Source: Citreicoccus inhibens (GTDB taxonomy: Bacteria > Myxococcota > Myxococcia > Myxococcales > Myxococcaceae). From it: a stretch of DNA of 64,000 bases. The stretch lies in the NCBI RefSeq assembly GCF_019039035.1, contig NZ_JAHNZT010000016.1:62001-126000 (forward strand), given 5' to 3'. The translations under genes were made by a program, and so were the position numbers. Positions 32,666 to 51,764 of this stretch are shown here, one piece after another; position 1 is the first letter of the stretch; every line of letters begins with the position of its first letter. The notes under the pieces were generated by a model. The model did no database searches. It was not told where the DNA came from and saw nothing but the letters and a program-made list of their open reading frames with translations.

Positions 32666-33140
32666 CCCAGACGAAGGCCACACTCCCGCGGGAGGCGGCG
32701 TGTCTCCCCGCCCCTCCCCTTCCGGCGCAGCTCCCAGAGCCGCTGGCGAGACGGGGTGCGACGAAACAGAACCTGGTGAGTCCGCGTACAACCCACGCGT
32801 GGCCCTCTCGCGCCCTGCGACCAGCCCGCGACGCCCAGATGACTCACACAACGCAGTAATGCGGATGCTGCGGCCTGCATGCCCGTCCTGTCTTGCCACT
32901 CAATCCCTCTCATCTCCGCGCCCCGCTTCGGCATCCCTGCTCCCGGGCGCTGCCTTTTCGCGCATTCACAGACACCCATCGCGCACCCACACCGTCACAT
33001 CGCGGAGACACCCGGCTCAACCTTGACAACTCATGCTCCAAGCCGCCCAGAACGCCATCACTGTTTTCCATGAATTATTCGTTAGCCCCGCCAGCGACAT
33101 TGGAGTACGCCAGGGCCGCTGTCTCACCTGGAGGGTGTTC
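32666..33140. other. Intergenic region, no gene seen
   Basis: 475 bases between folD and the second RCC1 gene. The frames here have no family similarity and no ribosome-binding sites. A 12-base palindrome ctcccgcgggag lies 20-odd bases after the folD stop and could be a weak terminator stem. The last 150 bases are more A/T-rich and presumably hold the promoter of the RCC1 gene, but I cannot point to boxes. Confidence 0.5.
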
Positions 33141-35454: not shown

Positions 35455-35718
35455 ATGAATCCAGAGCAAATCCTCGCCAGCCTGACTCAGTATGTCGCGC
35501 ATGAGATTCTCGAAGACGCCGCCGAGGATCTCACGTCCACCACGCCACTGCTCGAGTTGGGAGTCCTCAACTCCTTGGAGACCGCGCGCATGATGGCTTT
35601 CGTCGAGAAGCAGTTCGGCATCACCGTGCCCGCGGATGCGATGAGGGTCGAGAACCTCCAGACCCTCGCCGCAATCACAGACATGGTGTGCGCGTGCGCG
35701 CGGGTGCGCACGCCCTGA
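35455..35718 (+). CDS. Free-standing acyl carrier protein
   Basis: 87 residues. ACP fold: EQILASLTQYVAHEILEDAA, then the phosphopantetheine site LLELGVLNSLETARMMAFVE and QFGITVPADAMRVENLQTLA. The usual DSL is NSL, so Ser is present but the preceding Asp is Asn. It lies on the plus strand, convergent with the KS-AT gene at the end of the biosynthetic cluster, which itself has no ACP. It may serve that ketosynthase in trans. It also follows the RCC1 gene by 67 bases. Confidence 0.85.
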   Translation: MNPEQILASLTQYVAHEILEDAAEDLTSTTPLLELGVLNSLETARMMAFVEKQFGITVPADAMRVENLQTLAAITDMVCACARVRTP

Positions 35719-35720
35719 TA

Positions 35721-35766
35721 CTTCAGGGAGGACTCCCCCACTCCGTCAGGGGGAGTCCTTCTGAAG
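35721..35766. terminator. Strong bidirectional hairpin between ACP and KS-AT genes
   Basis: ggactccccc (35730-35739) pairs perfectly with gggggagtcc (35749-35758), extended outside by cttcag (35721-35726) and ctgaag (35761-35766). The stop codon of the minus-strand KS-AT gene (35746-35748) sits in the loop, so the hairpin overlaps its last codons. Confidence 0.75.
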
Positions 35767-38577
35767 TCCCAGCAGCGCCTGGACTTGCTCGTCCGAGAGC
35801 TGCTCCAGCATTTCGAGCTGTCCCGCCAGCGCATCCGCGTCCTCCGCCAGTGCCCCGACGAGCGTGTCCGCCACTCGGGGCGCGGGCGGTGCGGGCTGCT
35901 CGAACCAGTAGCGGCTGCGCTGGAAGCAGCTCGTGGGGAGCACGACCTTGTCGCGGCGCTGCTCGCGATAGAGGTCCTTCCAGGAGACCTCCGCGCCGAG
36001 CGCCACCAGCCCTCCCAGACAGGCCATGAGCGCCGCCCGGCCGTCCTGGCCTCCTCGCATGGGGAAGACGTTGGGCGGGTCGGAAACCAAGCGGAGCCGC
36101 GCCGCGAGGGGCGCCCAGCCCGTGCCAGTCCCCAGCTCCACGCCGCCGCTCAGCTCCTGTCGGCGCAGCTCCTCCACGACGGGGGTGAGCCGCGCCAGGG
36201 CTCCGGCTCGCGCGACCCAGGAGGGGCCGACGAGGAACGAACTCCAGGGCGCGCGGGGATGATCCGCGCCGTTCGCGCGTGCGGCCGCGAAGAGTGCCTC
36301 ACGCGCCGCGCCCCAGACCTCCGGGCTCCAGGCGTGCGAGGACTCACGCAGCTCGAACGACGCGCCTCGGCTGCGCAGGTCGGCCGCGAGCGCATCGACT
36401 TGCGCGCGCTCACCCGAGAAGTGGCCTCGGCCGTCCACGGACACGCCCACCCAACTGACGTCGGGATGCAGGGCCAACGTGGCCTCGTGCGACTCGAAGG
36501 CTTCGAGCGTCAGCATCGCTCCCGGCGCGGAGCGCTCCAGGCGTTCGGCCAGGGCCGCGACGTGGCGCATCCCGTCCTCCCACGACATCGCGCCGGCCGC
36601 GCACGCTGCCGCGAACTCCCCCGCGCCGATGCCCGCGAGGCATGCGGGCGTGATGCCCCAGTCCTTCCAGAGGCGCACGAGGCCGGCCTGCAACGCGAAC
36701 AGTCCAGGCAGGGCGACTCGCGGAGGAAGCGTTGCGGAGTCCTCGCCCCTCGCGGCGAGCAGCGCGTCGAGGAGGGGCCGCCCCAGCGCGCTCTCGCAGC
36801 GCTTCACGGCCTCGCGGAAGGATGGTTCGGACTCCAGGAGCGCGCTGCCCCACTCCAGCCCCTCCCCGTTCGCGCCCCCGAAGAGGAAGAGGAGCCGAGG
36901 GCGTTGCCTGCCGGTGCCTGCCCATCTCCCCGCGCCAGCCTCGGTGCCGTCGATGAAGGCCGCGAGACTCCGTCGGGCCTCGGCGGCATTCGAGGCCACC
37001 AGCGCGAGTCGATGGCTGAACGTCACGCGCCCGGTGTTCGCGGTGAAGCAGACGTTCGCGAACGGGGCGGGCGAGGCATCGTCCGGGGACAGGTGCGTCA
37101 CGTACCGCTGCGCCAGCTCGCGCAGCGCGGGGGCCGTCCTCGCCGACAACGTGAGGAGCTGCGTCGCGGGAAGCTCCGCCGACGGCTCGCCTTCCAGGGT
37201 GGGAGCCTCTTCGATGAGCACGTGCGCGTTGGCGCCGTTGAAGCCGAACGCGGTCACCCCAGCGATGCGCCGCTGCGCACCCCGCGTCCAGGGCGTGGCG
37301 CTCCGGGTGACGCTCACGGGCAGCTCGCTCCAGCGGATGTTGGGGTTGGGCGTCTCCAGGTTGAGGTGCGCGGGGAGTCGCTCGTGCTGGAGCGCGAGCA
37401 CGACCTTGATGATGCCCGCGACGCCCGCCGCGCCCTCGGTGTGACCGATGTTGGTCTTCACCGAGCCGACGAGCACGGGGTTGTCGCGCGTGCGCCCAGG
37501 GCCGAAGACGCGACCGAGCGCCTCCATCTCGATGGGGTCGCCAATGGCCGTCCCGGTTCCGTGCGCCTCCAGGTAGCTCACCTGGGCGGGCTCGACTCCG
37601 CCGGCCTGGAGCGCGGCCCGCATCACCTTGGCCAGCGCGGTTCCGTTGGGGACCGTGAGGCCGCTGGACTGGCCGCTGTGGTTCGTCGCGGAGCCTCGGA
37701 CGAGCGCGAGGATGGGGTCGCCATCCGCCAGCGCGTCCGAGAGCCGCTTGAGGACGAGCATCCCGCAGCCTTCGCCCCGGACGAAGCCATCCGCCCCCGC
37801 GTCGAACGTGCTGCATCGGCCCTTCACGGAGAGCATCCGCATCGCGCAGTTCACCACGGAGGTGAGCGGCGAGAGGACCAGGCTGATGCCACCCGCCAGC
37901 GCGAGGTCGCACTCGCGCGTGCGCAGGCTCTGACACGCGAGGTGCACGCTGACCAAGGAGGACGAGCAGGCCGCGTCCACCGCGAGCGTCGGGCCTTGGA
38001 GCCCGAGGATGTACGCGAGCCGCCCCGCCGCGACGCTCAGCCCGGAGCCCGAGGCGGTGTGCAGATCAATCTGCGTCGCGTCCTTCATCAGGTGCGAGAA
38101 GTCCTCGTTCATCATCCCGACGAAGACGCCGGTGGAGCTTCCCTTCAGGTCGGTCGCGGACAGGCCCGCGCGCTCCAGCGCCTCCCAGGAGACCTCCAGG
38201 AGCAACCGCTGATGCGGATCCATCCGCGCGGCCTCGCGGGGCGAGATGCCGAAGAACTGCGGGTCAAAGTCCTCCACGCCTTGGATGAACGAGCCGTGGC
38301 GGGTGTACATCTTCCCAGGCGTGCCCGGCGTGGGGTCGTAGTACGCGTCCAGGTCCCAGCGCGACGCGGGGATGGTCGAGATGGCGTCGCGACCCTGGTC
38401 GAGCAGCTCCCAGAAGGACTCGGGGGTGTCCGCTCCGCCGGGGAAGCGCAAGCCCATGCCGATGATGGCGATGGGCTCGCTCAGCGCGAGGGCCAGCTTG
38501 GGTTGGAGCTTGCGCGCCGCCAGCGCCAGCTTGAGCGGCGGCAACTCGGAGATGCGAGGCGAGGAATCCGTCGTCAT
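35746..38577 (-). CDS. Polyketide synthase: active KS with dead AT, no ACP
   Basis: 943 residues. An N-terminal docking helix (ISELPPLKLALAARKLQPKL) precedes a complete KS (about 34-455) with Cys204 in DAACSSS, His in EAHGTGT and KTNIGH. The following AT (about 560-880) has lost its catalytic residues: GHSxGE is GIGAGE (649-654) and HAFH is HAWS (748-751); the entry FTGQG is FGGANG. No DH, KR or ACP follows; the protein ends with an acidic docking-like tail LEQLSDEQVQALLGL. A functional partner would need an ACP and acyl supply in trans, possibly the free ACP at 35455. Last gene of the minus-strand operon, 21 bases after the previous PKS. Confidence 0.9.
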   Translation of the reverse strand: MTTDSSPRISELPPLKLALAARKLQPKLALALSEPIAIIGMGLRFPGGADTPESFWELLDQGRDAISTIPASRWDLDAYYDPTPGTPGKMYTRHGSFIQGVEDFDPQFFGISPREAARMDPHQRLLLEVSWEALERAGLSATDLKGSSTGVFVGMMNEDFSHLMKDATQIDLHTASGSGLSVAAGRLAYILGLQGPTLAVDAACSSSLVSVHLACQSLRTRECDLALAGGISLVLSPLTSVVNCAMRMLSVKGRCSTFDAGADGFVRGEGCGMLVLKRLSDALADGDPILALVRGSATNHSGQSSGLTVPNGTALAKVMRAALQAGGVEPAQVSYLEAHGTGTAIGDPIEMEALGRVFGPGRTRDNPVLVGSVKTNIGHTEGAAGVAGIIKVVLALQHERLPAHLNLETPNPNIRWSELPVSVTRSATPWTRGAQRRIAGVTAFGFNGANAHVLIEEAPTLEGEPSAELPATQLLTLSARTAPALRELAQRYVTHLSPDDASPAPFANVCFTANTGRVTFSHRLALVASNAAEARRSLAAFIDGTEAGAGRWAGTGRQRPRLLFLFGGANGEGLEWGSALLESEPSFREAVKRCESALGRPLLDALLAARGEDSATLPPRVALPGLFALQAGLVRLWKDWGITPACLAGIGAGEFAAACAAGAMSWEDGMRHVAALAERLERSAPGAMLTLEAFESHEATLALHPDVSWVGVSVDGRGHFSGERAQVDALAADLRSRGASFELRESSHAWSPEVWGAAREALFAAARANGADHPRAPWSSFLVGPSWVARAGALARLTPVVEELRRQELSGGVELGTGTGWAPLAARLRLVSDPPNVFPMRGGQDGRAALMACLGGLVALGAEVSWKDLYREQRRDKVVLPTSCFQRSRYWFEQPAPPAPRVADTLVGALAEDADALAGQLEMLEQLSDEQVQALLGLQKDSP

Positions 38578-38598: not shown

Positions 38599-41500
38599 TC
38601 AGCGGGAGCGGCGCAGCATGGCCTGCACCTGCCCGTCATCCAGGTCGTCCACGTCCGCGAGCAGTGCGTCCACCTCCGCGTCCTCGGCGACCTTGCGTTC
38701 CTTCGAGGCGTCGCGCAGGCCGAGGACCTCGACCGCGAGGTGCTCGGTGAGCGCGTTCACGGTGGGGTTGTCGAACGCCACGGTGGCGGGCAGCGAGGCC
38801 CCCAGGCTGCGCTGGAGGACGTTGCGCAGCTCGACAGACATCAGCGAGTCCATGCCGAGATCGAAGAAGCCCTGGGCAGGGTCGAGCGGTTCGAGGGCGG
38901 GCCGGCCCAACACCCCATTCACCAACGTGCCCACATGGGCCCGCAGCGCGGCGCGGCGCTCATCGGGTGGCAGGCGATCCAGTTTCGCGCGCAGGTTCTC
39001 CACCGTCGCTGCTGCCGCGGGCTGGAGGAAGCCCTCGTAGAGCGGCAGCCGGCCATGGCGGCCCAGCACCTCCCAATCCACTGGGAGGATGCCAAGCTGC
39101 CCGCGCAGCGACAGGGCTTGCTCCAGCACCCGAAGGCCCTCCTCGGGAGGGATGACGCCGAAGCCCAGCATCTCCATGCGCCGCTGGAGCTGGGCCTCGG
39201 AGGCCGCGCCCACTTCCGCCCAGGCGCCCCAGTTCATGCTCAGGCCCGGTAACCCCGAGGCGACGCGCAGCTGCGCCAGCCCGTCCAGGAAGGCATTGGC
39301 CGCCACATAGCCCGCCTGCCCCGCCGAGCCGATCAACGAGGCGGCCGACGAGAACAGGATGAAGAAGTCCAGCTGCGTCTCGCGAAGCGCCTGGTGCAGA
39401 TTCCAGCCGCCAGCGACCTTCGCGGCGAAGACCGTCGCGAAGCGCTCGGGCGTCATCTGCATGAACAGGCCATCGTCGATGACACCCGCCGCATGCAGGA
39501 CCCCGCGCAGTGGCGGACGGCCCTTCAGGCCCGCATCCAGGCACTGCTGAAGCGACTCCGCCCGCGACACATCGCATGCGAAGACGTGGACCTCCACGCC
39601 GCGCGCCTTCAACGCGTCGAGCCGCGCGCGCGCTTCCACCTGAGGCTCGCGCCGCCCGAGCAGGACAAGGTGCCGCGCGCCCCGCTCCGCGAGCCGCTCC
39701 ACCACGGCCAATCCCAGACCTCCGAACGCCCCGGTGACGAGGTAGCTCGCGTCTGGGCTCAGCGTGGGCTCCGGCTCGGACATCGCCACGCGGCGACTGC
39801 GCGCCAGACGGGCCACGCGACGCGACTCTCCGCGCCACACAATCTCCTCCTCCGCGCCGCTGCCGAACAGCTCGGCCTGGAGGTGCTCGACGTCGCGTTC
39901 GGAGGCTCGCGGACTCAGGTCCACGCGGCGGCAGTGAAGCTCCGGATGCTCGCGAGCAATGGCCTTGCCCAGGCCCCACAGCGCCGCGCCCTCCAGATGC
40001 TCCACCGATTCACGCTCCAACACGGACTGCGAGCCGCGCGTCACCAGCCAGAGGGACGTCGGCGCCTGCTTCTGCGCCCGAATGAGTGACTGCGCGAGCT
40101 TCAACACCCGCGAGCCCTGCGCCAGGACAGCGTCCGGAACAGCCGAACCTCGCGCCGCATCCTCCAGGCTCCACAGGTCAATGACGTGCAGGGGCGACGT
40201 GGCGTCTCGCTTCGCGAGCAACGCCTCCACGCGCGCCTCGTCGGACTCGGTGGCCGTGGCACCTCGCGCCACGGTCACGACACGCCAACCCTTTGCTTCG
40301 AGCCGGTCGGCCAGCGCGCGCCCCAGACCTCGCGCCTCCGCGAGGATGAGGCACTGCGCGGGCTCGGGCGGAGTCGTGGTCGCGGCGAGAGGAGCTTCCC
40401 GCCACGCCAGCTCATAGAGCCAGTTGCGCAGGCGCTTGCCGCGCGCGCCCAGGAACCCCTCGCGGGTGACTCGCCGCAGACGCAGGCGCTCGACCTCCGC
40501 GACGCGCTCGCCCTCCGGAGTGAGCAACACGAGGTCGCAGGCGTACCCCGGCCCCGAGGGCTCGTCGGTCCGCGAGACCTTCGCGTGCACCCACACCTCC
40601 TTCGCACCCGGGTTCCACACGCGCACCGCGCCGACTCCGGCGGGGAGGTAGGCCGCGTCCGCCGACTCCTCCACCACGGCCCCCACCATCTGGAAGCACG
40701 CATCGAGGAGCGCGGGCGGCAAGGCGTAGCGGCCCGCGTCCGCGATGGCCGCGCCCTCCAGTGCAAGCCGCGCGAGCACGGCGCCGTCCCCAGTCCACAG
40801 GCCCCGGATGGCGCGGAAGCTGGGGCCATAGGCGAGCCCCGCGCGCTGGAGCTTCGCGTAGTAGCCCTCGACGTCCACCTCTTGAACAAGCTCGCCTTGG
40901 AGTCGTGCGAGGTCCACGCGAGCCCCCGACGCAGCGGGCGTCGAGGACAGGCGTCCGTGCGCGTGGAGCGTCCAGGTCGGCTCGGGCTCGCCCTGAGAAT
41001 CGTCCTGACTGAAGATTTCAAATCGCCCCGCGCGATCGCCCTCGGGGGTGTAGAGGAGTTGCAGGCGTCGCTCCGTTGCATCCGCGAACAGGAGCGCTTG
41101 CGCGAACGTCACCTCGTCCAGCCGTGCCTGCCCCGCGCCCAGCACCGCCGCGCCGGCTGCGAGCCCCATCTCGACATACGCGGCCCCTGGCATCACGACC
41201 TGACCGAAGACGCTGTGGTCGCGCAGGAACGCGGGCCGAGATGGCGCCACGAAGGACTCGAACGCGCGCACCTGTCCTGGCGAAGCCTGACGACGTCCCA
41301 GCAAGGGATGAACCTGCTCGGTCCCTGCGGTGTCCCGCGCACGCGTCCCCTGTCGATCCCACTCCGTACCCGCGAGCTCCATCCAGTACTTCCTCCGCTG
41401 AAAGGGATAGGTGGGAAGCGCTGCCTTGCGCCGATCCCATCCTTCATCGAGTCCCGCCCACCGCACCGGTGCGCCGGCGACATAGAGGGACGCCAGTCCC

Positions 41501-44133
41501 TCCAACATCTGCTTCCAATCCGAGTGCTCGGGCCGAAGGCTGGCCACCCACTTCGGGCCTTCGCGCGAGAGGCACTCCTGCCCCAAGGTCAGCAGCGTGG
41601 GACGAGGCCCCAGCTCCACGAAGCACTGGATGCCCGCGCGCTCCAGCGTCTCCATGCCGCGCGCGAACAGCACGGGCTGGCGCAAGTGGTCCACCCAGTA
41701 CCGAGGCCGGGTTACTTCCTGCCCCGCCTCCTCGCCGCTCACATTGGAGATGAGCGGAATGGACGGCGGCTGTAGCCGCACCTTCGCCACCGCGCGCTCG
41801 AACGCATCGAGGATGGGGTCCATCCGCGCGGAGTGGAACGCGTGAGAGACCCGCAGCAGCGTGCCTCGCTTGCCGTCGCGCGCCAGCTCCGCGAGGCAGT
41901 CGCGCACCGCGTCCTCGTCCCCCGAGAGCACCACGCTGCGCGGACCGTTGATGGCGGCGAGCGACACCCGCCGGCCGTGCTTGGACAGCAGCGCCTCCGC
42001 CGTCACCGCGTCGGTGGAGACCGCGGCCATGGCACCGCCCGCCGGCAACGACTGCATCAGCCGGGCGCGCGTGGCGATCAGCTCCAACCCTTCTTCCAAG
42101 GTGAAGACGCCGGCCACACACGCGGCCACGAACTCGCCCACCGAGTGCCCCATCACGGCCTCGGGCGTCAGCCCCCACTGCATCCACACCTGGGCCAGCG
42201 CGTACTCGAGCGCGAACAGCGCGGGCTGCGTGCACCCCGTCTCATCCAGCCGGGCCCGGGCACGCTCGTCCCGCGCGGCGGGATAGAGCAACGAGGTGAG
42301 GGATTGCCCCAGCATCGGCGCGAGCACTTCGTCGCACCGGAGCAGCGTGCGCCGGAACAGCGGCTCGGTGCGGAACAGCTCCTCGCCCATGCCCAGCCAC
42401 TGCGCGCCCTGCCCCGTGAAGAGGAAGGCGCAACGAGGCGTGCCCTCCTGCTTCCCCTGGAACATCGACGGCGCGGGCTGCCCCTGCTGGAACGCGCGCA
42501 GTTGCTCGCGCATCACCTCGCGCGAGGCGCCCACCAGCGCGAGCCGATGCCGGAAGTGGGTGCGGCCGGTGTTGGCGGTGAAGCAGACGTCCTCCAGCGG
42601 CTCGGACGAGGGCGCGCCGAGCGCCTCCTCGTAGCGCTGGGCGAGTGCGCCGAGCGCCTCCGGGCTCCGCGCGGACAGGGTCAGCACCTGGACGGGGCGA
42701 GGGTTCGGCTCGGGCTCACGCGGAGCCTCGGCGGGTGCCTCCTCGACGAGGACGTGCGCGTTGACGCCGCTCAGTCCGAAGCCGCTGATGCCCGCCACCC
42801 GGGGCGCCTCGCCCGCTGGCCACGGGGTCAGCCGCGTGGGGATGGTGAGGCGCAGCCGGGCCCAGTCCACCGCGGGGTTGGGCTGACGCAGGTGGAGATG
42901 GGGCGGCAGCTCGCCATGGCGCAGCGACAGGGCGACCTTGATGAGTCCGGCCGCGCCCGCCGCGGACTCCAGGTGCCCCAGGTTCGTCTTCACCGAGCCG
43001 ACCTTCAGGAGCCCCTCGGGCCCGCGCCCCTCGCCGAGTACGGCGTCCAGGGCACGCAGCTCGATGGGGTCGCCCAGCGGAGTCCCCGTGCCGTGTGCCT
43101 CGATGTACTGCACGTCCGCGGGCTTGAGCCCCGCTGAGTCGAGCGCCTTGCGCAAGAGCTTCTCCTGCGCGGGGCCGTGCGGCACGGTGAGTCCGCCGCT
43201 CGGCCCATCATGATTCACGGCCGAGCCTCGGACGAGCGCGAGGATGCGGTCCTTGTCGCGGCGGGCATCCGACAGCCGCTTGAGGACGAGCACGCCGCAC
43301 CCCTCGCCGCGCCCGTAGCCGTTGGCCGAGGCGTCGAACGTCTTCGAGCGCCCGTCCGGCGCGAGGGCCCGCATCTTCGACAGGACGATGTTGTTGTCCG
43401 GATGGAGAATGAGGTTCACCCCACCCGCGAGCGCCAGGGAGCACTCGCCCTGGCGCAAGGCCTGCGCCGCGAGGTGCACGGACACGAGCGCGGACGAGCA
43501 CGCCGTGGCCACCACCATCGAGGGGCCTTGCAATCCCAAGACATACGAGACACGGCCCGCCGAGAAGCTCAGCTCATTGCCGGTGCCCATATACGGCAGG
43601 TCCCCGGTCTTGATGGCATTGAAGGGGACGCGGCCGTAATCACTGCTCAAGAAGCCGACATAGACGCCGGTCTCGCTGCCCGCGAGCGAGCCTGGGGCGA
43701 TGCCGGCGTCCTCCAAGGCCTCCCACGCGACCTCCAGCATGAGCCGCTGCTGGGGGTCCACGTAGCTGGCCTCGCGGGGCGAGAGCCCGAAGAACTCGGA
43801 GTCGAACCCCGCGATGGGCTGCGCGAGGAAGCCCCCCTCCCGCACGCTCATCTTCCAGGCCGCGTCCGGGTCCTGGGCGTAATAGGCGTCCGCATCCCAA
43901 CGATCCGCGGGCACCGGCCCCACCGCGTCGGTGCCCGAGCGCAACAGCTCCCAGTACTGGCGCGGACTGTCCGCGCCGCCCGGGAAACGGCAGCCCATCC
44001 CGATGATGGCGATGGGCTCCGAGCGTGCCTGTTCCAGGCCCTCCACGCGCGCGCGGAGGGTCTTGATGGCCAGCGCCGCCCGCTGAAGGGGCGTCATCGC
44101 CTCCGGCGAGGAGGAGGTCGGATCGTTGGGCAT
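38599..44133 (-). CDS. Type I polyketide synthase module KS-AT-DH-KR-ACP
   Basis: 1844 residues. A coiled docking helix (residues 14-36) comes first. KS about 38-465 with Cys212 in ATACSSA, EAHGTGT and KTNLGH. AT about 565-860 with GHSVGE and the malonyl-type HAFH. DH about 945-1210 with HSVFGQVVMP and LLDACFQ. A structural KR half and catalytic KR to about 1690 with GAFGGLG, IDDG and Tyr in GQAGYVAANAF. ACP about 1730-1800 with GMDSL. The C-terminus is acidic (AEDAEVDALLADVDDLDDGQ), a likely docking tail. It extends a chain by one malonate and leaves a double bond. 9 bases follow the radical SAM gene. Confidence 0.95.
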   Translation of the reverse strand: MPNDPTSSSPEAMTPLQRAALAIKTLRARVEGLEQARSEPIAIIGMGCRFPGGADSPRQYWELLRSGTDAVGPVPADRWDADAYYAQDPDAAWKMSVREGGFLAQPIAGFDSEFFGLSPREASYVDPQQRLMLEVAWEALEDAGIAPGSLAGSETGVYVGFLSSDYGRVPFNAIKTGDLPYMGTGNELSFSAGRVSYVLGLQGPSMVVATACSSALVSVHLAAQALRQGECSLALAGGVNLILHPDNNIVLSKMRALAPDGRSKTFDASANGYGRGEGCGVLVLKRLSDARRDKDRILALVRGSAVNHDGPSGGLTVPHGPAQEKLLRKALDSAGLKPADVQYIEAHGTGTPLGDPIELRALDAVLGEGRGPEGLLKVGSVKTNLGHLESAAGAAGLIKVALSLRHGELPPHLHLRQPNPAVDWARLRLTIPTRLTPWPAGEAPRVAGISGFGLSGVNAHVLVEEAPAEAPREPEPNPRPVQVLTLSARSPEALGALAQRYEEALGAPSSEPLEDVCFTANTGRTHFRHRLALVGASREVMREQLRAFQQGQPAPSMFQGKQEGTPRCAFLFTGQGAQWLGMGEELFRTEPLFRRTLLRCDEVLAPMLGQSLTSLLYPAARDERARARLDETGCTQPALFALEYALAQVWMQWGLTPEAVMGHSVGEFVAACVAGVFTLEEGLELIATRARLMQSLPAGGAMAAVSTDAVTAEALLSKHGRRVSLAAINGPRSVVLSGDEDAVRDCLAELARDGKRGTLLRVSHAFHSARMDPILDAFERAVAKVRLQPPSIPLISNVSGEEAGQEVTRPRYWVDHLRQPVLFARGMETLERAGIQCFVELGPRPTLLTLGQECLSREGPKWVASLRPEHSDWKQMLEGLASLYVAGAPVRWAGLDEGWDRRKAALPTYPFQRRKYWMELAGTEWDRQGTRARDTAGTEQVHPLLGRRQASPGQVRAFESFVAPSRPAFLRDHSVFGQVVMPGAAYVEMGLAAGAAVLGAGQARLDEVTFAQALLFADATERRLQLLYTPEGDRAGRFEIFSQDDSQGEPEPTWTLHAHGRLSSTPAASGARVDLARLQGELVQEVDVEGYYAKLQRAGLAYGPSFRAIRGLWTGDGAVLARLALEGAAIADAGRYALPPALLDACFQMVGAVVEESADAAYLPAGVGAVRVWNPGAKEVWVHAKVSRTDEPSGPGYACDLVLLTPEGERVAEVERLRLRRVTREGFLGARGKRLRNWLYELAWREAPLAATTTPPEPAQCLILAEARGLGRALADRLEAKGWRVVTVARGATATESDEARVEALLAKRDATSPLHVIDLWSLEDAARGSAVPDAVLAQGSRVLKLAQSLIRAQKQAPTSLWLVTRGSQSVLERESVEHLEGAALWGLGKAIAREHPELHCRRVDLSPRASERDVEHLQAELFGSGAEEEIVWRGESRRVARLARSRRVAMSEPEPTLSPDASYLVTGAFGGLGLAVVERLAERGARHLVLLGRREPQVEARARLDALKARGVEVHVFACDVSRAESLQQCLDAGLKGRPPLRGVLHAAGVIDDGLFMQMTPERFATVFAAKVAGGWNLHQALRETQLDFFILFSSAASLIGSAGQAGYVAANAFLDGLAQLRVASGLPGLSMNWGAWAEVGAASEAQLQRRMEMLGFGVIPPEEGLRVLEQALSLRGQLGILPVDWEVLGRHGRLPLYEGFLQPAAAATVENLRAKLDRLPPDERRAALRAHVGTLVNGVLGRPALEPLDPAQGFFDLGMDSLMSVELRNVLQRSLGASLPATVAFDNPTVNALTEHLAVEVLGLRDASKERKVAEDAEVDALLADVDDLDDGQVQAMLRRSR

Positions 44134-44142
44134 CGTGTCGAC

Positions 44143-46167
44143 CTAGTGTCCTGCGGTGGCGAGTGCAGGCCCCGGGCTCACGGCTGGACGGGCGCCCATG
44201 CTCTTCCAGTCAATCGTCCCGAGCTGCGCGGCGATCTTCAGGTCGATGATGCGCTGACGCTCACCTCGGTCCAGGACGATGCTGAGGTAGCGCGCGCCCT
44301 CGCTGATGATCCAATTGCGCTCGACGAAGCTCGCGAGCAACGCGTCGAAGTCCGCCTCCGACAGCGGCCCGCCCTCGCGGCCCTCGTTGACGTGCGCCAG
44401 CGCGGAGCGCGAACTCTGGATGGAGTCCATGAACTTGAGCAGCCGCAAGCCGTCCGCGGTCAGCGGTGTCTCGCGCGACGCGCCGTCGCGCGAGTCGAGG
44501 ATGAACGTCTTGCTGCCCTCGGTCTTGAGCTCCAGCGTCACGCCTCGGCTGTAGCCGTCGCGCCACTGCTCGGTGCGCTTGAGGGTGTCCTGGAGATAGA
44601 CGGTCGGGTCGCGCTCGTCCTCGTGGTCGTAGTCGAAGTAGTAGGCGATGCGGCGCCGCTCCTCGGGGGGGAGCTGCGCGTAGACGTAGTCGTAGGACCA
44701 CTTCTGGCGGACGTTCTTGAGCTTGTACTTCTCCGGGCTCTTCCAGTACGGCGCGAAACGATCCAACCGGATCTTCCCGGCTCCGCCCGGCGGCGGCAGG
44801 TGAAACAGCGAGGGCATCAGCTCCGCCATCGCCGCGTACTCAGACGGCAGCTCTCCCGGGAAGCCGAAGAGGATGTTCCAGTTGACGTTGATCGCGAACT
44901 CCTCGCACCACTTGATGAGCTGGATGTTCTGGAGACGGGTGGTCCCCTTGTCCATCAGCTCCAGCACCGCCGTGCTGAGGCTCTCGATGCCCGGCTGGAG
45001 TTCGGTGACGCCGCCCGCGACCATGAGCTCCAACTGATCTTTGCGCAGGTTGCTCTTGGTCTCGTAGAACATCGTCAGCTCATCACCTTGCGTGATGAGG
45101 GCCGGGAACACCGACTTGATGTATTTCAAGTCGAGGATGTTGTCGGCCATCATGAAGAAGTTGAAGCCATACTTCCGAGACAGCGTGCGCATCTCCTGGA
45201 CGAAGCGGCCCGGGTCCTTGCTGCGATAGGCCATGCCAGAGCCGTTGAGGCCGCAGAACGTGCAGTGCGCCTTGGCGCCCCACCAGCAGCCGCGCGACGA
45301 CTCGGCCGTGAGGTTGGCGCGCTTCGCCATGGGCATGTCCTTGATGGCCGCGAAGTAGTGATCGAAGTCGGGCATGGGCAGTGAGTCCATGTTTTCGATC
45401 TGCGGCGCCGCCACGTAGCGCGGCTGGGGACGCCCTCCGCTCTTCTCCAGCACGTTCTGCACGAGGCTCAGGATGACGCCCTCTCCCTCGCCGGACACCA
45501 CGTGGTCCATGAACGGGAAGTTGTCCGCGAGGGCCTTGCCCATGTCCGCCTCGCAGTTGGCGCCGCCCATGATGAGCGTCAGCTCCTCACGGGGCCGCAG
45601 CCGACGCAGCTCCTTGGCCAGCGCCAGCGACGCCAGGCTCTGCTGGAAGGTGGACGTGAAGCCGATGACGCGGGGGTTGTCGCGGAGGATCTCCTGCGCC
45701 CACTGCTTCACGATGCGCGGGCTGTCCTCGCGCAGCGCGCGGATGAGCTCGCGGGCCCGGCCCCAGTGCAGGGCCTGCTCGCGGCGCGCGCCACCGCCCG
45801 AGCTGGCGCCCTCCGTGTGTTGTTTCACCTCGAGGAGCGGCGTGAGCCGGTCCGCATACTCCTCCCAGTTCGACGCCGCGTCGCCCCAGAGCGCCGGCGC
45901 GAAGACCATCTCCCCCAACAGCAGGTCCGGCGACGCGGGGAGGAAGGCCATCTCACCGGCGAGGATCTCCGGGGGCGTGGCGTAGGACAGGTAGTAATAC
46001 AGCTCCCAGCCAATCTGACGCATGAACTGCACGTTCAAATACTGCACATCCGCGCGGATGCCGTTCTGCTGGAGGAGGCTGAGCATCGTGCTGACGCCGA
46101 GGGCGGGCTGATGCTCGGGGAGGAACGGCGCGACGACGAATCGGACTTGAATGGAATCACCAGACAC
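44143..46167 (-). CDS. B12-binding radical SAM protein of the RiPP-maturation type
   Basis: 674 residues from a GTG at 46167 with AAGGAG 6 bases upstream. Residues 5-245 form a cobalamin-binding-like domain (RFVVAPFLPEHQPALGVSTM, VIGFTSTFQQSLASLALAKE, ELTLIMGGANCEADMG, VVSGEGEGVI). The radical SAM core starts SSRGCWWGAKAHCTFCGLNG, with Cys294, Cys302 and Cys305 in a C-x7-C-x2-C arrangement. This WWG...CTFCGLNG motif is that of ribosomal-peptide maturation radical SAM protein 1. Such enzymes make methyl transfers or other radical changes on peptides. No precursor peptide gene is nearby; the substrate here is presumably a carrier-bound intermediate or the final product. It sits between two PKS genes in one operon. 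Confidence 0.9.
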   Translation of the reverse strand: MSGDSIQVRFVVAPFLPEHQPALGVSTMLSLLQQNGIRADVQYLNVQFMRQIGWELYYYLSYATPPEILAGEMAFLPASPDLLLGEMVFAPALWGDAASNWEEYADRLTPLLEVKQHTEGASSGGGARREQALHWGRARELIRALREDSPRIVKQWAQEILRDNPRVIGFTSTFQQSLASLALAKELRRLRPREELTLIMGGANCEADMGKALADNFPFMDHVVSGEGEGVILSLVQNVLEKSGGRPQPRYVAAPQIENMDSLPMPDFDHYFAAIKDMPMAKRANLTAESSRGCWWGAKAHCTFCGLNGSGMAYRSKDPGRFVQEMRTLSRKYGFNFFMMADNILDLKYIKSVFPALITQGDELTMFYETKSNLRKDQLELMVAGGVTELQPGIESLSTAVLELMDKGTTRLQNIQLIKWCEEFAINVNWNILFGFPGELPSEYAAMAELMPSLFHLPPPGGAGKIRLDRFAPYWKSPEKYKLKNVRQKWSYDYVYAQLPPEERRRIAYYFDYDHEDERDPTVYLQDTLKRTEQWRDGYSRGVTLELKTEGSKTFILDSRDGASRETPLTADGLRLLKFMDSIQSSRSALAHVNEGREGGPLSEADFDALLASFVERNWIISEGARYLSIVLDRGERQRIIDLKIAAQLGTIDWKSMGARPAVSPGPALATAGH

Positions 46168-46187: not shown

Positions 46188-49025
46188 TCAGCGCAGCGCC
46201 AGGTAGAGGGAGTCCGCCAGCTCGCCGATGCTCTTGCCGGCCAGCAGCTCCTGGAGGGGAAACTCGACGCGAAGCTCGCTGTGCAGCAGCTTCTTCAACT
46301 CCACGCCCATCAACGAATCGAGGCCCAGCTCGTGCAAAGTCTGCTCGGGCTCGGGGAGCTGGGAAGCGCCCAGCTCGAGCACGCGAGCCACCCGTGCGCG
46401 GAACCAGTCGAGCACCGCCGCGCGACCTTCGTCTCGCGAGCCGCTCCGCACGCGGCGCAGCAGCTCGCGACGCCCACCCGCGTCGCTTCGGGCCGCGTCC
46501 GTGCCGCCCCAGAAGTCCTCGAACAGCGGCGGCAGCGCGTCGCCCGGCAGGCCGCTGATGAACGTGGGCCAGTGAATGGGCATCACCCCCACCGCCGCCG
46601 GCACGGGCCCGAAGATCTGCTCCAACACCGAGAAGGCACGCGCCGCGGGCAGCATGCCCACGCCCTTCTTGCGCATGCGCGCATCCAGGGCCTGGAGGGC
46701 TTCGTCACCCGGCTGCATCCACGCGCTCCAGCTGGAGCTCTGGGCATGTTGTCCCAGGGAGCGGCGGTACTCCGCGAAGCCATCCAAGAAGGCCGTGGCC
46801 GCCAGGTGGTTCGTCTGCCCCGAGCCGCCCAGGAGCGACGTCGAGGATGACAAGGACAGGAAGAAGTCGAGAGGCCGGCCCGCGAGCCAGCGGTGGAGGT
46901 TCCACGCGCCGGCCACCTGCGCCGCGAACACGCGCCCCATGCGCTCCCGCGTCTGGTGCACGAGGATGCCGTCATCCACCTCCATCGCCGCGTGGATGAC
47001 CCCGCGCAAGGGAGGCATGCGCTTGGAGATGCCGGCCATCACGAAGTCGAGGTCCGAGTCCACCGAGACGCCCGCGAGCGAGACGATGGTCGCGCCTCGG
47101 GCGCGCATCTCGCCCACCTCCTGGGTGGAGACGTCGCTGGCGCGCTTGCGCCCGAGCAACACGAGGTGGCGCGCGCCGTGCTCCACCATCCACCGGGCCA
47201 CCATCAACCCGAGACCGCCGAGTCCGCCCGTCACGAGGTAGGTGGCGTCCGCGCGGAACGCCCCTCGCCCCACGCCCTCCCAATCCCACTGGCGATGACG
47301 CATGAGCCGCAGCACGTGGCGGCCCCCGTCGCGGAACAGGACCTGATCCTCGCGCGAGCCGGCGCGCAGCTCCGTCCAGAGCGCGAGCGCGGCGGACTCG
47401 GCATCCCGGTTGGGGTCGAGGTCCACGCGACGGCAATCCAGCTCGGGATGCTCATACGCGATGGCCTTGCTCAGCCCCCACAGCGGAGCGCCCAGCAGGC
47501 CGGGCAGCTCGCCCCGCTCCTCCAGGCGCTGCGCGCCGCGGGTGACGACCCAGAGCGAGGGTGACGCGGCGCCGCTCTTGAGCAGCGCCTGCGTGAGGTA
47601 CAGCACCGCGCCGCACCCATCGAGCGACTCATCCTGAAGCTCGAGGACCGACATCGCTTCTGGCCGGGGCGCATCCAGGTTCCACAGGTACACCGCATGC
47701 GACGGCGCGATGCCGGCCGCGGTGAGCGACGCCATGAGTTGATGGAAGGACTCGGGCGCTCGCGCGGAGACCTCGTGTCCACCCGCGCCATCCGCTCGGT
47801 ACGCCGCACCAGGGCGCACGAGCGTGCAGCGCCCGCCGGCGGCTTCGATGTGTCGGGCCAGCGCCTCCGCCACGCCGCCCCGGTCCGCGAAGAGCAGACA
47901 GTGGACGGGCGTGGGCGCGACCTCCACCTCGGGCTCGCGCGCGCGCTCGGAGGCGGGCCGCCAGCGCGGCGCGTACAACCACGTGTGCGGCAGCTCCGCG
48001 TAGCGCGGGGCATGCATGAGCCGCTCGCGGTTCTGCGCTTCGAGCTGGGACGGCTCCAGCGAGGACTGCTTGCGCGCGGTCAACAGCAGGTACGAGACGG
48101 CGTCTCCCGCGAGCAGGCCCGCGAGCGCCTCGTGGGCCCGCGCGACCTCGGTCCGGACGTCATCCTGGGCCCAGCCCAGTCGCTGCAGCTGCGCGTCCAG
48201 CCCCGGCGCGTGGAGGTAGTTGGCGGCCTCGCGCGCCGCGTCCACGCAGTCCTCGATGAGGAAGCCCTGGGCCGAGAGGTCCGCGCACAGCTCGTCGAGG
48301 AGCGGCAGCCCCAGCCGCTCGACGTGAGGCAGCGACAGGCGGGTGCGAAGGAAGAGGTCGCCCAGGACAAGCTGGCCCCCTTCCTTCACCCGCCCGCCCA
48401 GCGCGGCGAAGAGCGCCGAGCGGTCCTCTGTCTGGCGCAGCGCCTCCAACCCGAAGGCCAGATCGAACGGCTCCCCCGCGCGCTCCCCTCCGAGCGCCTC
48501 GGTGGTGATGGCGACGCGCTCCTCGAGGCCGTGGCTGCGCACGAGTTGGCGCGTGGCCTCCACCTCGGCGGCGGAGGAGGCCTGACCGACGAGGTGGCGC
48601 GTCGCCGTGCGGCGGGCGAGCGCGACGAGTTCCTGCCCCTGCCCTGCTCCGAAGCCCAGGATGCGCTCGCAGCGCGTGAGGTCTACGTTGCGGAAGAGCG
48701 CGCCCCGCAGCTCTCGGTGGGCTTCCGCCAGAAGCACGGCCTGCGCCCCCGAGGCCGCGCCGCGCGCCGCATCCAGCCAGGAGAACGCGGGGATGACCTC
48801 CCCGAGCAAGGCGAGCGTGGGGAACGCGCCCACCGTGCCGCCGCCCTGCTCCGCCTGGGCGCGGAAGAACGCGTCCAGCGTGAGCGCGCGGCCCCGAGCG
48901 CTGGGCGCCTCGTTGGACGTCGCGGTCCCGCGAGACTTCAGCGCCAACTCCAACAACGCGCGTCTCTCGGGTGATAGCGCGGCGAGCCGCTCCGCGAGAA
49001 TCCGGCCCGTTCCCTCGTGTGCCAT
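46188..49025 (-). CDS. PKS protein: methyltransferase-like, catalytically dead KR, ACP (no KS or AT)
   Basis: 945 residues. A short helical docking start (LAALSPERRALLELALKSRG) is followed by a methyltransferase-like domain about 60-320, with the SAM-loop relative ILGFGAGQGQELVALA. A structural KR half about 370-560 comes next, then a KR-fold about 595-770. In the KR the cofactor loop TGGLGGLG is intact, but catalytic Tyr is His740 (GQTNHLAATAF) and catalytic Lys is Gln703 (AAQVAGAWNL), so ketoreduction is unlikely. ACP about 870-940 with GLDSL (Ser904). The absence of KS and AT makes it a partial module that must work with another protein. The GxGxG loop of the methyltransferase is also not canonical. 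Confidence 0.85.
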   Translation of the reverse strand: MAHEGTGRILAERLAALSPERRALLELALKSRGTATSNEAPSARGRALTLDAFFRAQAEQGGGTVGAFPTLALLGEVIPAFSWLDAARGAASGAQAVLLAEAHRELRGALFRNVDLTRCERILGFGAGQGQELVALARRTATRHLVGQASSAAEVEATRQLVRSHGLEERVAITTEALGGERAGEPFDLAFGLEALRQTEDRSALFAALGGRVKEGGQLVLGDLFLRTRLSLPHVERLGLPLLDELCADLSAQGFLIEDCVDAAREAANYLHAPGLDAQLQRLGWAQDDVRTEVARAHEALAGLLAGDAVSYLLLTARKQSSLEPSQLEAQNRERLMHAPRYAELPHTWLYAPRWRPASERAREPEVEVAPTPVHCLLFADRGGVAEALARHIEAAGGRCTLVRPGAAYRADGAGGHEVSARAPESFHQLMASLTAAGIAPSHAVYLWNLDAPRPEAMSVLELQDESLDGCGAVLYLTQALLKSGAASPSLWVVTRGAQRLEERGELPGLLGAPLWGLSKAIAYEHPELDCRRVDLDPNRDAESAALALWTELRAGSREDQVLFRDGGRHVLRLMRHRQWDWEGVGRGAFRADATYLVTGGLGGLGLMVARWMVEHGARHLVLLGRKRASDVSTQEVGEMRARGATIVSLAGVSVDSDLDFVMAGISKRMPPLRGVIHAAMEVDDGILVHQTRERMGRVFAAQVAGAWNLHRWLAGRPLDFFLSLSSSTSLLGGSGQTNHLAATAFLDGFAEYRRSLGQHAQSSSWSAWMQPGDEALQALDARMRKKGVGMLPAARAFSVLEQIFGPVPAAVGVMPIHWPTFISGLPGDALPPLFEDFWGGTDAARSDAGGRRELLRRVRSGSRDEGRAAVLDWFRARVARVLELGASQLPEPEQTLHELGLDSLMGVELKKLLHSELRVEFPLQELLAGKSIGELADSLYLALR

Positions 49026-49115: not shown

Positions 49116-49547
49116 CTAGGTGAGCTTGATCTTCTCCGGCGCGGTGGCCGGAACAGGCGCGGCGGGCTTCGGCTGCGCCGGGGCTTGCGCCTGGGGATGG
49201 GCCTCGCCCTGCTTGGGCTCCTGGCCGCGCGCGCGCGTGGCCTCCTCCATCAGCTGCTTGAGGGTCTTCATGCGAGGGCTGAGGCGCCGATCACCGCCGG
49301 CCTCGCTGCCCTGCGAGCGCGCGTCATCCTGGATGGCCGTGTCGATGTGCTCCAGCTCGTGAATCTGCGCGTCGAGCAGGTGCGACACCCCCTGAAGGAA
49401 ATCCCGCTTGGCGCGATAGAGCTGCTGCACGAAGCCGCGCCCTCCTGGGATGACAGCGTCGACGAAGCCGGCGACCTGCGCCCCTTCCTCGGGCTGGGTC
49501 TCCAGTCGAAAGAACCCCTTGGGCAAACGCTTGTTCTGCGAAGTCAT
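49116..49547 (-). CDS. Small helical protein of unknown function in the PKS/NRPS operon
   Basis: 143 residues. Residues 20-65 form amphipathic helices (VAGFVDAVIPGGRGFVQQLY, RAKRDFLQGVSHLLDAQIHE), residues 80-105 a basic helix, and residues 106-143 a Gln/Pro/Ala-rich disordered tail. Its ATG overlaps the ArsA stop (ATGA), so the pair is translationally coupled. I do not recognise the family. The pattern resembles surface-coat or phasin-like proteins, but that is only an impression. 90 bases separate it from the next gene. Confidence 0.75.
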   Translation of the reverse strand: MTSQNKRLPKGFFRLETQPEEGAQVAGFVDAVIPGGRGFVQQLYRAKRDFLQGVSHLLDAQIHELEHIDTAIQDDARSQGSEAGGDRRLSPRMKTLKQLMEEATRARGQEPKQGEAHPQAQAPAQPKPAAPVPATAPEKIKLT

Positions 49548-50617
49548 GTGTCTCTCCTCTCGTGTTGAAAGCTCACCGTCAGTCTGTTCCCTTCCAGCCG
49601 GGCTCCCGTGGTTGCCAACGAGGCAATCATTCGCGGAAGCAAGACATTTCGCCGGAAGTCACCCACCTGGATGACCAGCTCCGACTCACGACGCGAGAGA
49701 TTGATTTCGTCTCGGGTCGTGAACGGCAGATGGATCTCCAGGCAATACACATCCACCGCGTCCTTGCGGATCCCCAGCGCGGGCGAGGTGACGCGGGCCC
49801 CGGTGGGGTCCTCGTCCGCGTGCAGCAGTCGCGCGAAGGCCATGAGCGCGTCCGGGCCCACGACCTCGGCGGACTGCCGGGGCACTTCGACGACTTGCAG
49901 CGGCTCGACCTGCGCCTGAAGCGCCCGAGCCAGGCCCTCCGCCGGAGCCGCGCCGAGGTGGTTGACCACCAGGCCGTCCACGCAGAGCCCCTGGAGACAG
50001 AAGGCCGAGTACGCCCGACGCACCTCCTCGACGGCGCCGGCGCGGGGGGCCGTCACGAGGCGAAGGGTGGTCACCTCGGGGTCGCGCAGCAGCACTTCGA
50101 GCGCGCTCAGGCGGTCGCGAACCCGGGCGAGGGCTTCGACATTGCCCCGAGCCCAGCGCACGCTCCGCTCCGGGCCCGCCCAGCGCCGCACGAACCAGCT
50201 CAGCGAGGCCGGGCCGCTCACGAAGCGCAGCGCCGCGCCGAGCGAGGGCCCGTCCACGATGATCAACGCGTAGCGCCCCGAGCGAACGTGCTCCTCCAGG
50301 AGGAGCAGCGCGAGCAGCTCATCCAGCCCCGGCGCGAGCGCCACCTCGTCCGCCGTCACCCCCTCCAGGCCCCCACCCAGGAGCGTGGCGATGTCGCCCC
50401 GCCCCTCGTTCCAGCCACGCGCCAGCTCGGCGTGGACGTCGAGGGTCTGGATGTCCAGGTGCGCGTCCGGGCCGAGCACGTCGCGAAGTCCTCGCGATTG
50501 ATCGAAGGACAGCACCAGCGTCCGCGTGCCTCGGCGCGAGGCGGCGAGGCCGGTCGCGGCCGCCACGGTTGTCTTTCCGACTCCGCCACTTCCCGTGACA
50601 AGGATGATGCGCGTCAT
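49544..50617 (-). CDS. ArsA/Get3-family ATPase
   Basis: 357 residues from the ATG at 50617 with AGGAG 8 bases upstream; a GTG at 50641 is an alternative. Deviant Walker A loop VTGSGGVGKTTVAAATGLAA, switch-like DQSRGLRDVLG, DGPSLGAALRFVSGP, and a C-terminal strand-rich domain ending ESELVIQVGDFRRNVLLPRM, which is the ArsA-HSP20-like end piece. Proteins of this group dimerise on ATP and move metalloids or hydrophobic proteins; the function in a biosynthetic operon is unknown. It follows patatin by 46 bases and overlaps the small helical gene. Confidence 0.88.
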   Translation of the reverse strand: MTRIILVTGSGGVGKTTVAAATGLAASRRGTRTLVLSFDQSRGLRDVLGPDAHLDIQTLDVHAELARGWNEGRGDIATLLGGGLEGVTADEVALAPGLDELLALLLLEEHVRSGRYALIIVDGPSLGAALRFVSGPASLSWFVRRWAGPERSVRWARGNVEALARVRDRLSALEVLLRDPEVTTLRLVTAPRAGAVEEVRRAYSAFCLQGLCVDGLVVNHLGAAPAEGLARALQAQVEPLQVVEVPRQSAEVVGPDALMAFARLLHADEDPTGARVTSPALGIRKDAVDVYCLEIHLPFTTRDEINLSRRESELVIQVGDFRRNVLLPRMIASLATTGARLEGNRLTVSFQHERRDT

Positions 50618-50663
50618 TCCACGGCTCCTGTGTTCACTCACGCTCGGGGACGGTTCGCGGTCT

Positions 50664-51764
50664 TCAGCCCACCGCGGGCGCGGGTTGGGTCCCCGCGGCG
50701 GCGTCTCCCAGCCAGCCGGAGCGCTGCAACCACTGGCGCGTGCGCTGGAGGAGATCCTGGGTGGACTGCTGGCTCAGCAGTTGGACGAGCACCTTGTCGA
50801 CCTGCTCCAGGTCGGTGGCGGACAGGCTCTTCTCCACCGGAGGATTCAGCCGGAGGTACTGCTTCCGGAGGATCATCCGGCACTGGTAGTGCACGGCGTC
50901 CGAGCCGGCATCGAGCAGCATCTTCACCAGGACCATGGGGTCGCGCAGGTCGAGCAGCCACTCACTGAAGCCCCAGTTGGCCGTCCCGTCCCGGAACTTG
51001 GGGTCGAGGTAGCTGGGCATGACGCCATTGCCCATGGACAGCAGCAGGATGTTGCTCAGGTCGGGCGCCTCCGACTCCAGCGTCTCCAGCTTCTCGTGTT
51101 TGCTCTTGCGAGACGCGTCGTTGATGACCTGCGCGAGCCCGATGAGCGAGGGGTTGTTCGCATACACCCCGCCATCCACGTAGCCGCTGCCCTTCTCCCG
51201 GAGGCCCTGGTAGATGGGATACGACATGGGCGGCGAGCCGCTGCGCATCAAGACATCCACCACCAGCTCGTTCATGTCCGGGTCGTTCTCCGAACCCGTG
51301 TTGTGAAACACCTTGGCCTTCCAGGCGCGCACGACACCCCGGTTGCCGTCGAGTTGGAACGAGGGGATGACGACCTTGCGCTTCAGGTCCCCCAGCTTCA
51401 GGTTGGGCCCGAAGTAGCTGGAGAAGAAGTCGCGCATGTAGCTCGAATCCAACAGCGAGCTGCCTCCCATCAGCGCCCGGACGGTGCGAGCCAGGGAGAC
51501 ACCCTTCTTGTTCATGGAGACGACCTCACCCCAGAACTGGAGACACTTGTCGAAGGCGCGGTCCGGGTCCTGCTCGCTGGCGAAGAACGCGGCGTTGAAC
51601 GAGCCCGCGGAGGTGCCAACGAACATGTCCACCTGGTTGAGCAGTGCTCGTGAGTCTCCACTCTCGTCAAGCAGCTGGCGCAACGCGCCCAGCATGCCTG
51701 CCGAGACATACCCCTCGCCCCCAGACACGGGCGTTCCATCCAATGCGAGAATCCGGTGCGGCAT
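50664..51764 (-). CDS. Patatin-like phospholipase/acyl hydrolase
   Basis: 366 residues from the ATG at 51764, overlapping the NRPS stop (TGATG) with an AAGGAGGT ribosome-binding site, so the two are translationally coupled. The nucleophile motif is VDMFVGTSAGSFNAAFF and the catalytic Asp is in GYVDGGVYANNPSLIGLAQV. The oxyanion region is LALDGTPVSGGEGYVSAGML, lacking the usual GGGxRG form. No signal peptide. It could hydrolyse a lipid or cleave an acyl chain or ester from the natural product. The C-terminus is a helical, Gln-rich extension. Confidence 0.88.
   Translation of the reverse strand: MPHRILALDGTPVSGGEGYVSAGMLGALRQLLDESGDSRALLNQVDMFVGTSAGSFNAAFFASEQDPDRAFDKCLQFWGEVVSMNKKGVSLARTVRALMGGSSLLDSSYMRDFFSSYFGPNLKLGDLKRKVVIPSFQLDGNRGVVRAWKAKVFHNTGSENDPDMNELVVDVLMRSGSPPMSYPIYQGLREKGSGYVDGGVYANNPSLIGLAQVINDASRKSKHEKLETLESEAPDLSNILLLSMGNGVMPSYLDPKFRDGTANWGFSEWLLDLRDPMVLVKMLLDAGSDAVHYQCRMILRKQYLRLNPPVEKSLSATDLEQVDKVLVQLLSQQSTQDLLQRTRQWLQRSGWLGDAAAGTQPAPAVG

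What the first reader, a model, noticed from the sequence alone, without database searches (positions are those of the whole stretch)
44143..46167. RiPP-maturation radical SAM without a RiPP precursor
The motif GCWWGAKAHCTFCGLNG places it with ribosomal peptide maturation radical SAM protein 1. No leader-peptide gene was found in any neighbour. In a PKS/NRPS setting it probably acts on a carrier-bound chain, perhaps as a methyltransferase partner of the MT-KR-ACP protein.
Basis: partly seen in the sequence, partly recalled or inferred. Interest (0 to 1): 0.62.

Follow-up and report, generated by a model that had tools for sequence, protein, structure and literature searches.

The report
RiPP-type C-methylase inside DKxanthene pathway
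An enzyme of a family that normally adds methyl groups to ribosomally made peptides sits, strongly conserved and without any peptide partner, inside the assembly line for the myxobacterial yellow pigment DKxanthene, where it most likely adds methyl groups to the pigment itself in only about half of the species that carry the pathway.

Summary
Observation confirmed. The gene at 44143-46167(-) is a full-length TIGR03975 protein (574 bits, cutoff 282) with a CX7CX2C motif and a cobalamin-type radical-SAM fold. No RiPP precursor fits: the gaps on either side are 9 and 20 bp. The same cluster lies in M. stipitatus DSM 14675 (G110, exact genome length), a strain with a published DKxanthene cluster. 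Of 23 such clusters, 12 genomes carry the radical SAM gene. In four lacking clusters read in full, exactly three genes are missing: this one, the MT-KR-ACP and a KS-AT protein. That split module is degenerate (AT without serine, KR without tyrosine) and its MT resembles O-methyltransferases. Paralogues elsewhere in the order stand alone or beside RiPP precursors, none beside a PKS. Best reading: a RiPP C-methyltransferase lineage recruited to methylate DKxanthene intermediates, probably carrier-bound. The substrate carbon is unknown.

The parts
44143..46167 (-). radical SAM C-methyltransferase of family TIGR03975 (674 aa)
45472..45708 (-). cobalamin-binding region (residues 154-232)
   Evidence: Pfam B12-binding 26 bits, below cutoff; fold match to cobalamin enzymes
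45253..45288 (-). CX7CX2C [4Fe-4S] motif C294, C302, C305; invariant in 34 aligned homologues
44818..45297 (-). radical SAM core (residues 291-450)
44248..44556 (-). C-terminal winged-helix domain (residues 538-640), region shared with RiPP-associated paralogues; RRE-like topology
46188..49025 (-). OMT-KR-ACP protein: O-methyltransferase-like domain, KR without catalytic Tyr/Asn, intact ACP serine; absent from the four clusters without the radical SAM gene that were read
35746..38577 (-). KS-AT protein: intact KS cysteine, AT without catalytic serine, no ACP; third gene of the co-occurring trio
38599..44133 (-). PKS KS-AT-DH-KR-ACP, present in all DKxanthene-type clusters read
49116..49547 (-). 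143-aa protein of unknown function, next to the Get3-like ATPase; not a RiPP precursor
49544..50641 (-). ArsA/Get3-like ATPase
50664..51797 (-). patatin-like hydrolase
51764..56074 (-). NRPS C-A-PCP-TE; A-domain code DGTKVGEVAK, Asn-like
56071..61548 (-). PKS KS-AT-DH-KR-ACP
61556..64000 (-). PKS KS-AT-DH-KR-ACP, continues beyond the window into L037; followed there by Cy-A-PCP-KS-AT-DH-KR-ACP, KS-AT0-KR-ACP, KS0-ACP, prolyl-PCP dehydrogenase and prolyl ligase
35455..35718 (+). free-standing carrier protein at the cluster edge, probable prolyl/pyrrolyl carrier

Best explanation
The protein is a cobalamin-dependent radical SAM C-methyltransferase that descends from the RiPP-maturation family TIGR03975 and has been recruited to a DKxanthene assembly line. 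It most likely puts one or more methyl groups on an unactivated carbon of a DKxanthene intermediate, using methylcobalamin and a 5'-deoxyadenosyl radical. Shown here: family, cofactor motif and fold, cluster type, lack of a precursor, strong conservation, and joint absence with the OMT-KR0-ACP and KS-AT0 genes. Inferred: that the intermediate is carrier-bound, most likely on the ACP of the OMT-KR-ACP protein loaded by the KS of the KS-AT protein; that the extra split module is mainly a modification station; and that the C-terminal winged-helix domain, which may bind a leader in RiPP relatives, now contacts the assembly line. The methylated carbon is not known.
For: TIGR03975 at twice its cutoff; CX7CX2C invariant; confident model (pLDDT 87.8) closest to OxsB, TsrM, TokK and CysS. 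Pyrrole starter: dehydrogenase 497 bits to PigA (cutoff 500), ligase best match the solved L-prolyl carrier ligase 6o6e; heterocyclization motif; Asn-like A domain in all ten clusters compared. Published DKxanthene: Asn, polyene, oxazoline, pyrrole, variable methyl branching (PMC4902038). G110 length 10,350,586 bp equals M. stipitatus DSM 14675 (PMC3622980), which makes at least eight DKxanthene variants with side-chain modifications (PMC13218925). Trio missing together in G103, G118, G100, G074. The 12 orthologues form one clade, support 100/100. Twenty paralogue loci hold no PKS; one holds an NRPS about 7 kb away; several have NHLP or double-glycine leader precursors next door.
Against: No product data tie the gene to a methyl group. 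The extra module may add other chemistry that explains the variants. Timing (on carrier, before loading, or after release) is untested. The winged-helix domain matches many DNA-binding proteins as well as it matches the RRE of TbiB1. The O-methyltransferase SAM motif varies between species, so that domain may be inactive.
Confidence: 0.66

Rival explanations
1. The radical SAM enzyme extends an alkoxy group: the O-methyltransferase domain makes a methoxy group on the carrier-bound chain and the radical SAM enzyme alkylates that methyl, as CysF and CysS do in cystobactamid biosynthesis.
For: The O-methyltransferase-like domain and the radical SAM gene are absent together; CysS is a myxobacterial cobalamin radical SAM enzyme that iteratively alkylates methoxy groups, with CysF as the assumed O-methyltransferase (PMC7966384); CysS structures, two of them with pantetheinylated substrate, match the model at Z 14-16.
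Against: No sequence match to CysS or any PDB chain by phmmer; CysS acts on an aryl ether; the O-methyltransferase motif I is variable.
Confidence: 0.15
2. It methylates an early building block (pyrrolyl-carrier, the oxazoline precursor amino acid, or Asn) or the released pigment, not the chain on the extra module.
For: The family is annotated as peptide C-methyltransferases, and DKxanthenes contain amino-acid-derived parts; several carriers are available.
Against: The starter and NRPS genes are the same in clusters with and without the enzyme, whereas the enzyme is missing together with the extra module and lies between its ACP gene and the next PKS with gaps of 20 and 9 bp.
Confidence: 0.25
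3. It catalyses a cobalamin/radical SAM reaction other than methylation (ring contraction, rearrangement, cyclisation).
For: Best structural match is OxsB, known for ring contraction (its reaction from general knowledge).
Against: The sequence family is annotated as C-methyltransferases; the fold is shared by cobalamin radical SAM enzymes in general.
Confidence: 0.1
4. It is a genuine RiPP maturase with a distant precursor gene and sits in the PKS operon by chance or for shared regulation.
For: Its paralogues in the order are in RiPP-like or stand-alone contexts.
Against: Every orthologue locus read over enough length has the gene at the same place in the PKS operon; no leader hit near it; no room in the operon.
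Confidence: 0.04

Closest known systems
TIGR03975 RiPP maturation radical SAM C-methyltransferases
   Same: Full-length profile match, CX7CX2C motif, shared C-terminal region
   Different: No precursor; embedded in a PKS/NRPS operon; separate clade with a long stem (0.88 changes per column)
DKxanthene-type clusters of G103, G118, G100 (M. xanthus-like, inferred) and of G074
   Same: Same genes in the same order from the free carrier protein to the prolyl ligase
   Different: They lack the radical SAM, OMT-KR-ACP and KS-AT genes; G103, G118 and G100 carry two other genes (oxidoreductase-like and phosphatase-like by inspection) next to the dehydrogenase
CysS (cystobactamid) and TokK (carbapenem)
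   Same: Cobalamin radical SAM enzymes outside RiPPs, solved with pantetheinylated substrates; fold match Z 14-16
   Different: No detectable sequence similarity by phmmer; different pathways; whether they score with TIGR03975 was not tested
StiD and StiE O-methyltransferase domains (stigmatellin)
   Same: Closest solved relatives of the MT domain in the neighbouring protein
   Different: Here fused to a degenerate KR and paired with a degenerate AT

Membership tests
TIGR03975 (RiPP maturation radical SAM C-methyltransferase) | Score above curated cutoff, full length | tested here: met
   574.4 bits vs 281.85, profile 2-605/606
TIGR03975 (RiPP maturation radical SAM C-methyltransferase) | Conserved cluster motif CX7CX2C | tested here: met
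TIGR03975 (RiPP maturation radical SAM C-methyltransferase) | Methylates carbon in a ribosomal peptide | not testable with these tools
   needs biochemistry
RiPP gene cluster | Precursor peptide gene near the maturase | tested here: not met
   small ORF 49116-49547 excluded
Class B (cobalamin-dependent) radical SAM methyltransferase | Cobalamin-binding N-terminal domain plus radical SAM barrel | tested here: met
   Pfam radical SAM above cutoff, B12-binding below cutoff; fold of OxsB, TsrM, TokK, CysS
DKxanthene gene cluster | Pyrrole starter genes | tested here: met
   prolyl-PCP dehydrogenase and prolyl ligase, free carrier protein
DKxanthene gene cluster | Oxazoline-forming NRPS module and polyene PKS modules | tested here: met
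   Cy motif and DH-KR modules
DKxanthene gene cluster | Terminal asparagine-loading NRPS module | tested here: met
   code DGTKVGEVAK vs textbook DLTKVGEVGK, positions read by motif
DKxanthene gene cluster | Orthology with a cluster shown to make DKxanthene | tested here: inconclusive
   same cluster in M. stipitatus DSM 14675, a producer; the paper that mapped its cluster is cited but not held
DKxanthene gene cluster | Product made by this strain | not testable with these tools
   needs culture and LC-MS
RRE (RiPP recognition element) domain | Beta3-alpha3 winged helix of PqqD type | tested here: inconclusive
   TbiB1 RRE Z 7.8, 78 of 83 residues, tied with generic winged helices at Z up to 8.6
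CysS-type alkoxy alkylase | Sequence relationship to CysS | tested here: inconclusive
   no phmmer hit; fold match Z 14-16

The most novel reading that the evidence does not exclude
A RiPP maturase, including its leader-recognition-like winged-helix domain, has been converted into an assembly-line enzyme: a degenerate split PKS module (KS-AT0 plus OMT-KR0-ACP) no longer extends the chain but parks it on an ACP so that the radical SAM enzyme can alkylate it, making the rSAM-bearing species producers of a distinct branch of DKxanthenes.
Probability: 0.25. Interest if true: 0.75.

Novelty: new variant of a known kind. Interest (0 to 1): 0.52.

Why it matters
It shows a peptide-modifying radical enzyme family crossing from ribosomal peptides into a polyketide/nonribosomal pathway, so an automatic 'RiPP' label on such genes can mislead. 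It also splits the DKxanthene clusters into two genetic types and offers a concrete candidate for the unexplained extra variants of M. stipitatus, a strain with existing DKxanthene mutants. A B12 radical enzyme acting on an ACP-bound polyene would be a useful C-methylation tool.

Tried and rejected
RiPP precursor search with NHLP and Nif11 leader models, and by ORFs in every gap: nothing. The 143-aa protein as precursor: rejected, present in clusters without the enzyme. The second pyrrole-type cluster on contig C35 as 'the' DKxanthene cluster: rejected, its radical SAM gene occurs in only four genomes while the window's cluster is the one shared with M. stipitatus and others. Sequence search of the PDB with the enzyme: no hit. 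A single change explaining the distribution of the trio: not supported by the backbone tree, which needs two changes with G074 as root, for example a gain followed by a loss in the G100/G103/G118 lineage. Papers linking radical SAM to DKxanthene or to M. stipitatus PKS clusters: none held. A first reading of the NRPS A-domain code used wrong offsets and was corrected.

Full report
OBSERVATION. Pfam finds the radical SAM domain above cutoff and the B12-binding domain below cutoff. AlphaFold2 gives a confident model (mean pLDDT 87.8) whose best matches are cobalamin radical SAM enzymes: OxsB, TsrM, TokK and, by the second aligner, also CysS. The cluster cysteines C294, C302 and C305 are invariant in 34 homologues.

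NO PRECURSOR. The gene is 9 and 20 bp from its neighbours; the other operon gaps are at most about 90 bases and hold no plausible peptide gene. Leader models for NHLP and Nif11 precursors give only sub-threshold hits on other contigs of this genome. The only small protein, 49116-49547, has a conserved N-terminal half and a Pro/Ala-rich tail and occurs also where the enzyme is absent.

CONTRAST WITH RELATIVES. Of 145 genomes of the order, 12 have an orthologue at 82-98%; others have only relatives at about 30-41% identity. I read 20 loci of such relatives (20 kb each): none has a KS, AT or KR; one has an NRPS about 7 kb from the gene. Several have NHLP precursors within about 5 kb, mostly adjacent (G074, G046, G081 twice, G109; against positions), and others have small double-glycine-leader peptides next door (L061, L063, L065, by inspection). 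The 12 orthologues form one clade (100/100) on a long stem. This supports one recruitment from a RiPP-type lineage, with the caution that many branches are long.

THE CLUSTER IS DKXANTHENE-TYPE. Outside the window the operon continues with a Cy-A-PCP-KS-AT-DH-KR-ACP protein, a KS-AT0-KR-ACP protein and a KS0-ACP protein, then divergent genes for a PigA-like prolyl-carrier dehydrogenase and a PltF-like prolyl ligase. A free carrier protein closes the other end (35455-35718). The terminal A domain carries DGTKVGEVAK, eight of ten positions of the textbook Asn code, in all ten clusters compared (positions were read from motifs, not from a full alignment). Published DKxanthenes consist of asparagine, a polyene, an oxazoline and a pyrrole, with varying chain length and methyl branching (PMC4902038). 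G110 has 10,350,586 bases, exactly the published length of M. stipitatus DSM 14675 (PMC3622980), and carries this cluster from end to end. That strain has a DKxanthene cluster, mutants without the pigment and at least eight variants with side-chain modifications (PMC13218925).

PRESENCE AND ABSENCE. The dehydrogenase orthologue (79% or more) marks 23 such clusters. Twelve of these genomes have the radical SAM orthologue; 11 do not. Reading four of the 11 in full (G103, G118, G100, G074) shows colinear clusters that lack exactly three genes: radical SAM, OMT-KR-ACP and KS-AT. I did not read the other seven. On a backbone tree rooted with G074, the trio needs two changes (quick method, SH-aLRT support only), for instance one gain and a loss in the G100/G103/G118 lineage. 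If so, the well-studied M. xanthus type would be the exception.

THE EXTRA MODULE. Together KS-AT and OMT-KR-ACP make one split module. In all six trio genomes compared the AT has lost its GHS motif and the KR has lost the catalytic Tyr and Asn, while the KS cysteine and the ACP serine stay. The MT domain is most like the O-methyltransferase domains of StiE and StiD (E 5e-27 and 3e-24), so the idea of two cooperating C-methyltransferases does not hold. The module may be a station for modification, or it may be loaded in trans; the KS-AT0-KR-ACP protein present in all clusters compared also lacks an active AT motif, so sharing of ATs is plausible here (inference).

CONSTRAINT. Among the cluster's proteins the radical SAM enzyme is the best or second-best conserved: dN/dS 0.07, 0.09 and 0.14 in three pairs, against roughly 0.13-0.40 for the PKS and NRPS genes. 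The only comparably constrained gene across the three pairs is the prolyl dehydrogenase. A tolerated passenger would not look like this.

C-TERMINAL DOMAIN. Residues 538-640, modelled alone (pLDDT 88.9), form a three-strand, three-helix winged helix. The RRE protein TbiB1 matches over 78 of its 83 residues at Z 7.8, but generic winged helices score up to 8.6, so RRE identity is inconclusive. The region aligns with the RiPP-associated paralogues at low identity (11-26%).

MECHANISM AND LIMITS. Shown: family, cofactor signature, cluster type, absence of precursor, joint absence, constraint. Inferred from the family and from CysS and TokK, solved with pantetheinylated substrates: methyl transfer through methylcobalamin to an unactivated carbon of a carrier-bound DKxanthene intermediate. 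A CysF/CysS-like alkoxy route is a serious rival because an O-methyltransferase-like domain is absent whenever the enzyme is absent in the clusters read (PMC7966384).

VERDICT. Observation confirmed; interpretation partly right; new variant of a known kind. Whether earlier DKxanthene papers already tested this gene could not be checked.

Noticed in passing
G000:C35:105301-142000 (L083-L085): A second pyrrole-starter PKS/NRPS cluster in the same genome has its own cobalamin radical SAM gene, of another family (TIGR04190, 379 bits, below its 500 cutoff), directly before the prolyl-carrier dehydrogenase; the gene occurs in four genomes.
   Followed up: partly
49116-50641: A Get3/ArsA-like ATPase and a 143-aa partner overlapping it by 4 bp are present in every DKxanthene-type cluster read; their role is unexplained.
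   Followed up: partly
L088-L090, L091-L093, L097: Clusters of G103, G118 and G100 have two genes (865 and 474 aa in G103, by inspection an FAD oxidoreductase-like and a phosphatase-like protein) between the KS0-ACP and dehydrogenase genes that the rSAM-type clusters lack.
   Followed up: no
L067:5132-12892: Four radical SAM genes related to the finding stand in tandem in G112 with no PKS nearby.
   Followed up: no
29197-31554 and 33033-35387: An RCC1-repeat protein at 29197-31554 and a gene of similar size at 33033-35387 border the cluster.
   Followed up: no
L038:2357-5158: Type 2A encapsulin shell gene (SrpI-like with cNMP-binding domain) next to a similar gene, just beyond the far end of the cluster.
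   Followed up: no
46188-49025 and L037:4105-13011: KR domains with His in place of the catalytic Tyr: in OMT-KR-ACP and also in the Cy-A-PCP-KS-AT-DH-KR-ACP protein of all clusters compared, although the latter module should feed the polyene.
   Followed up: partly
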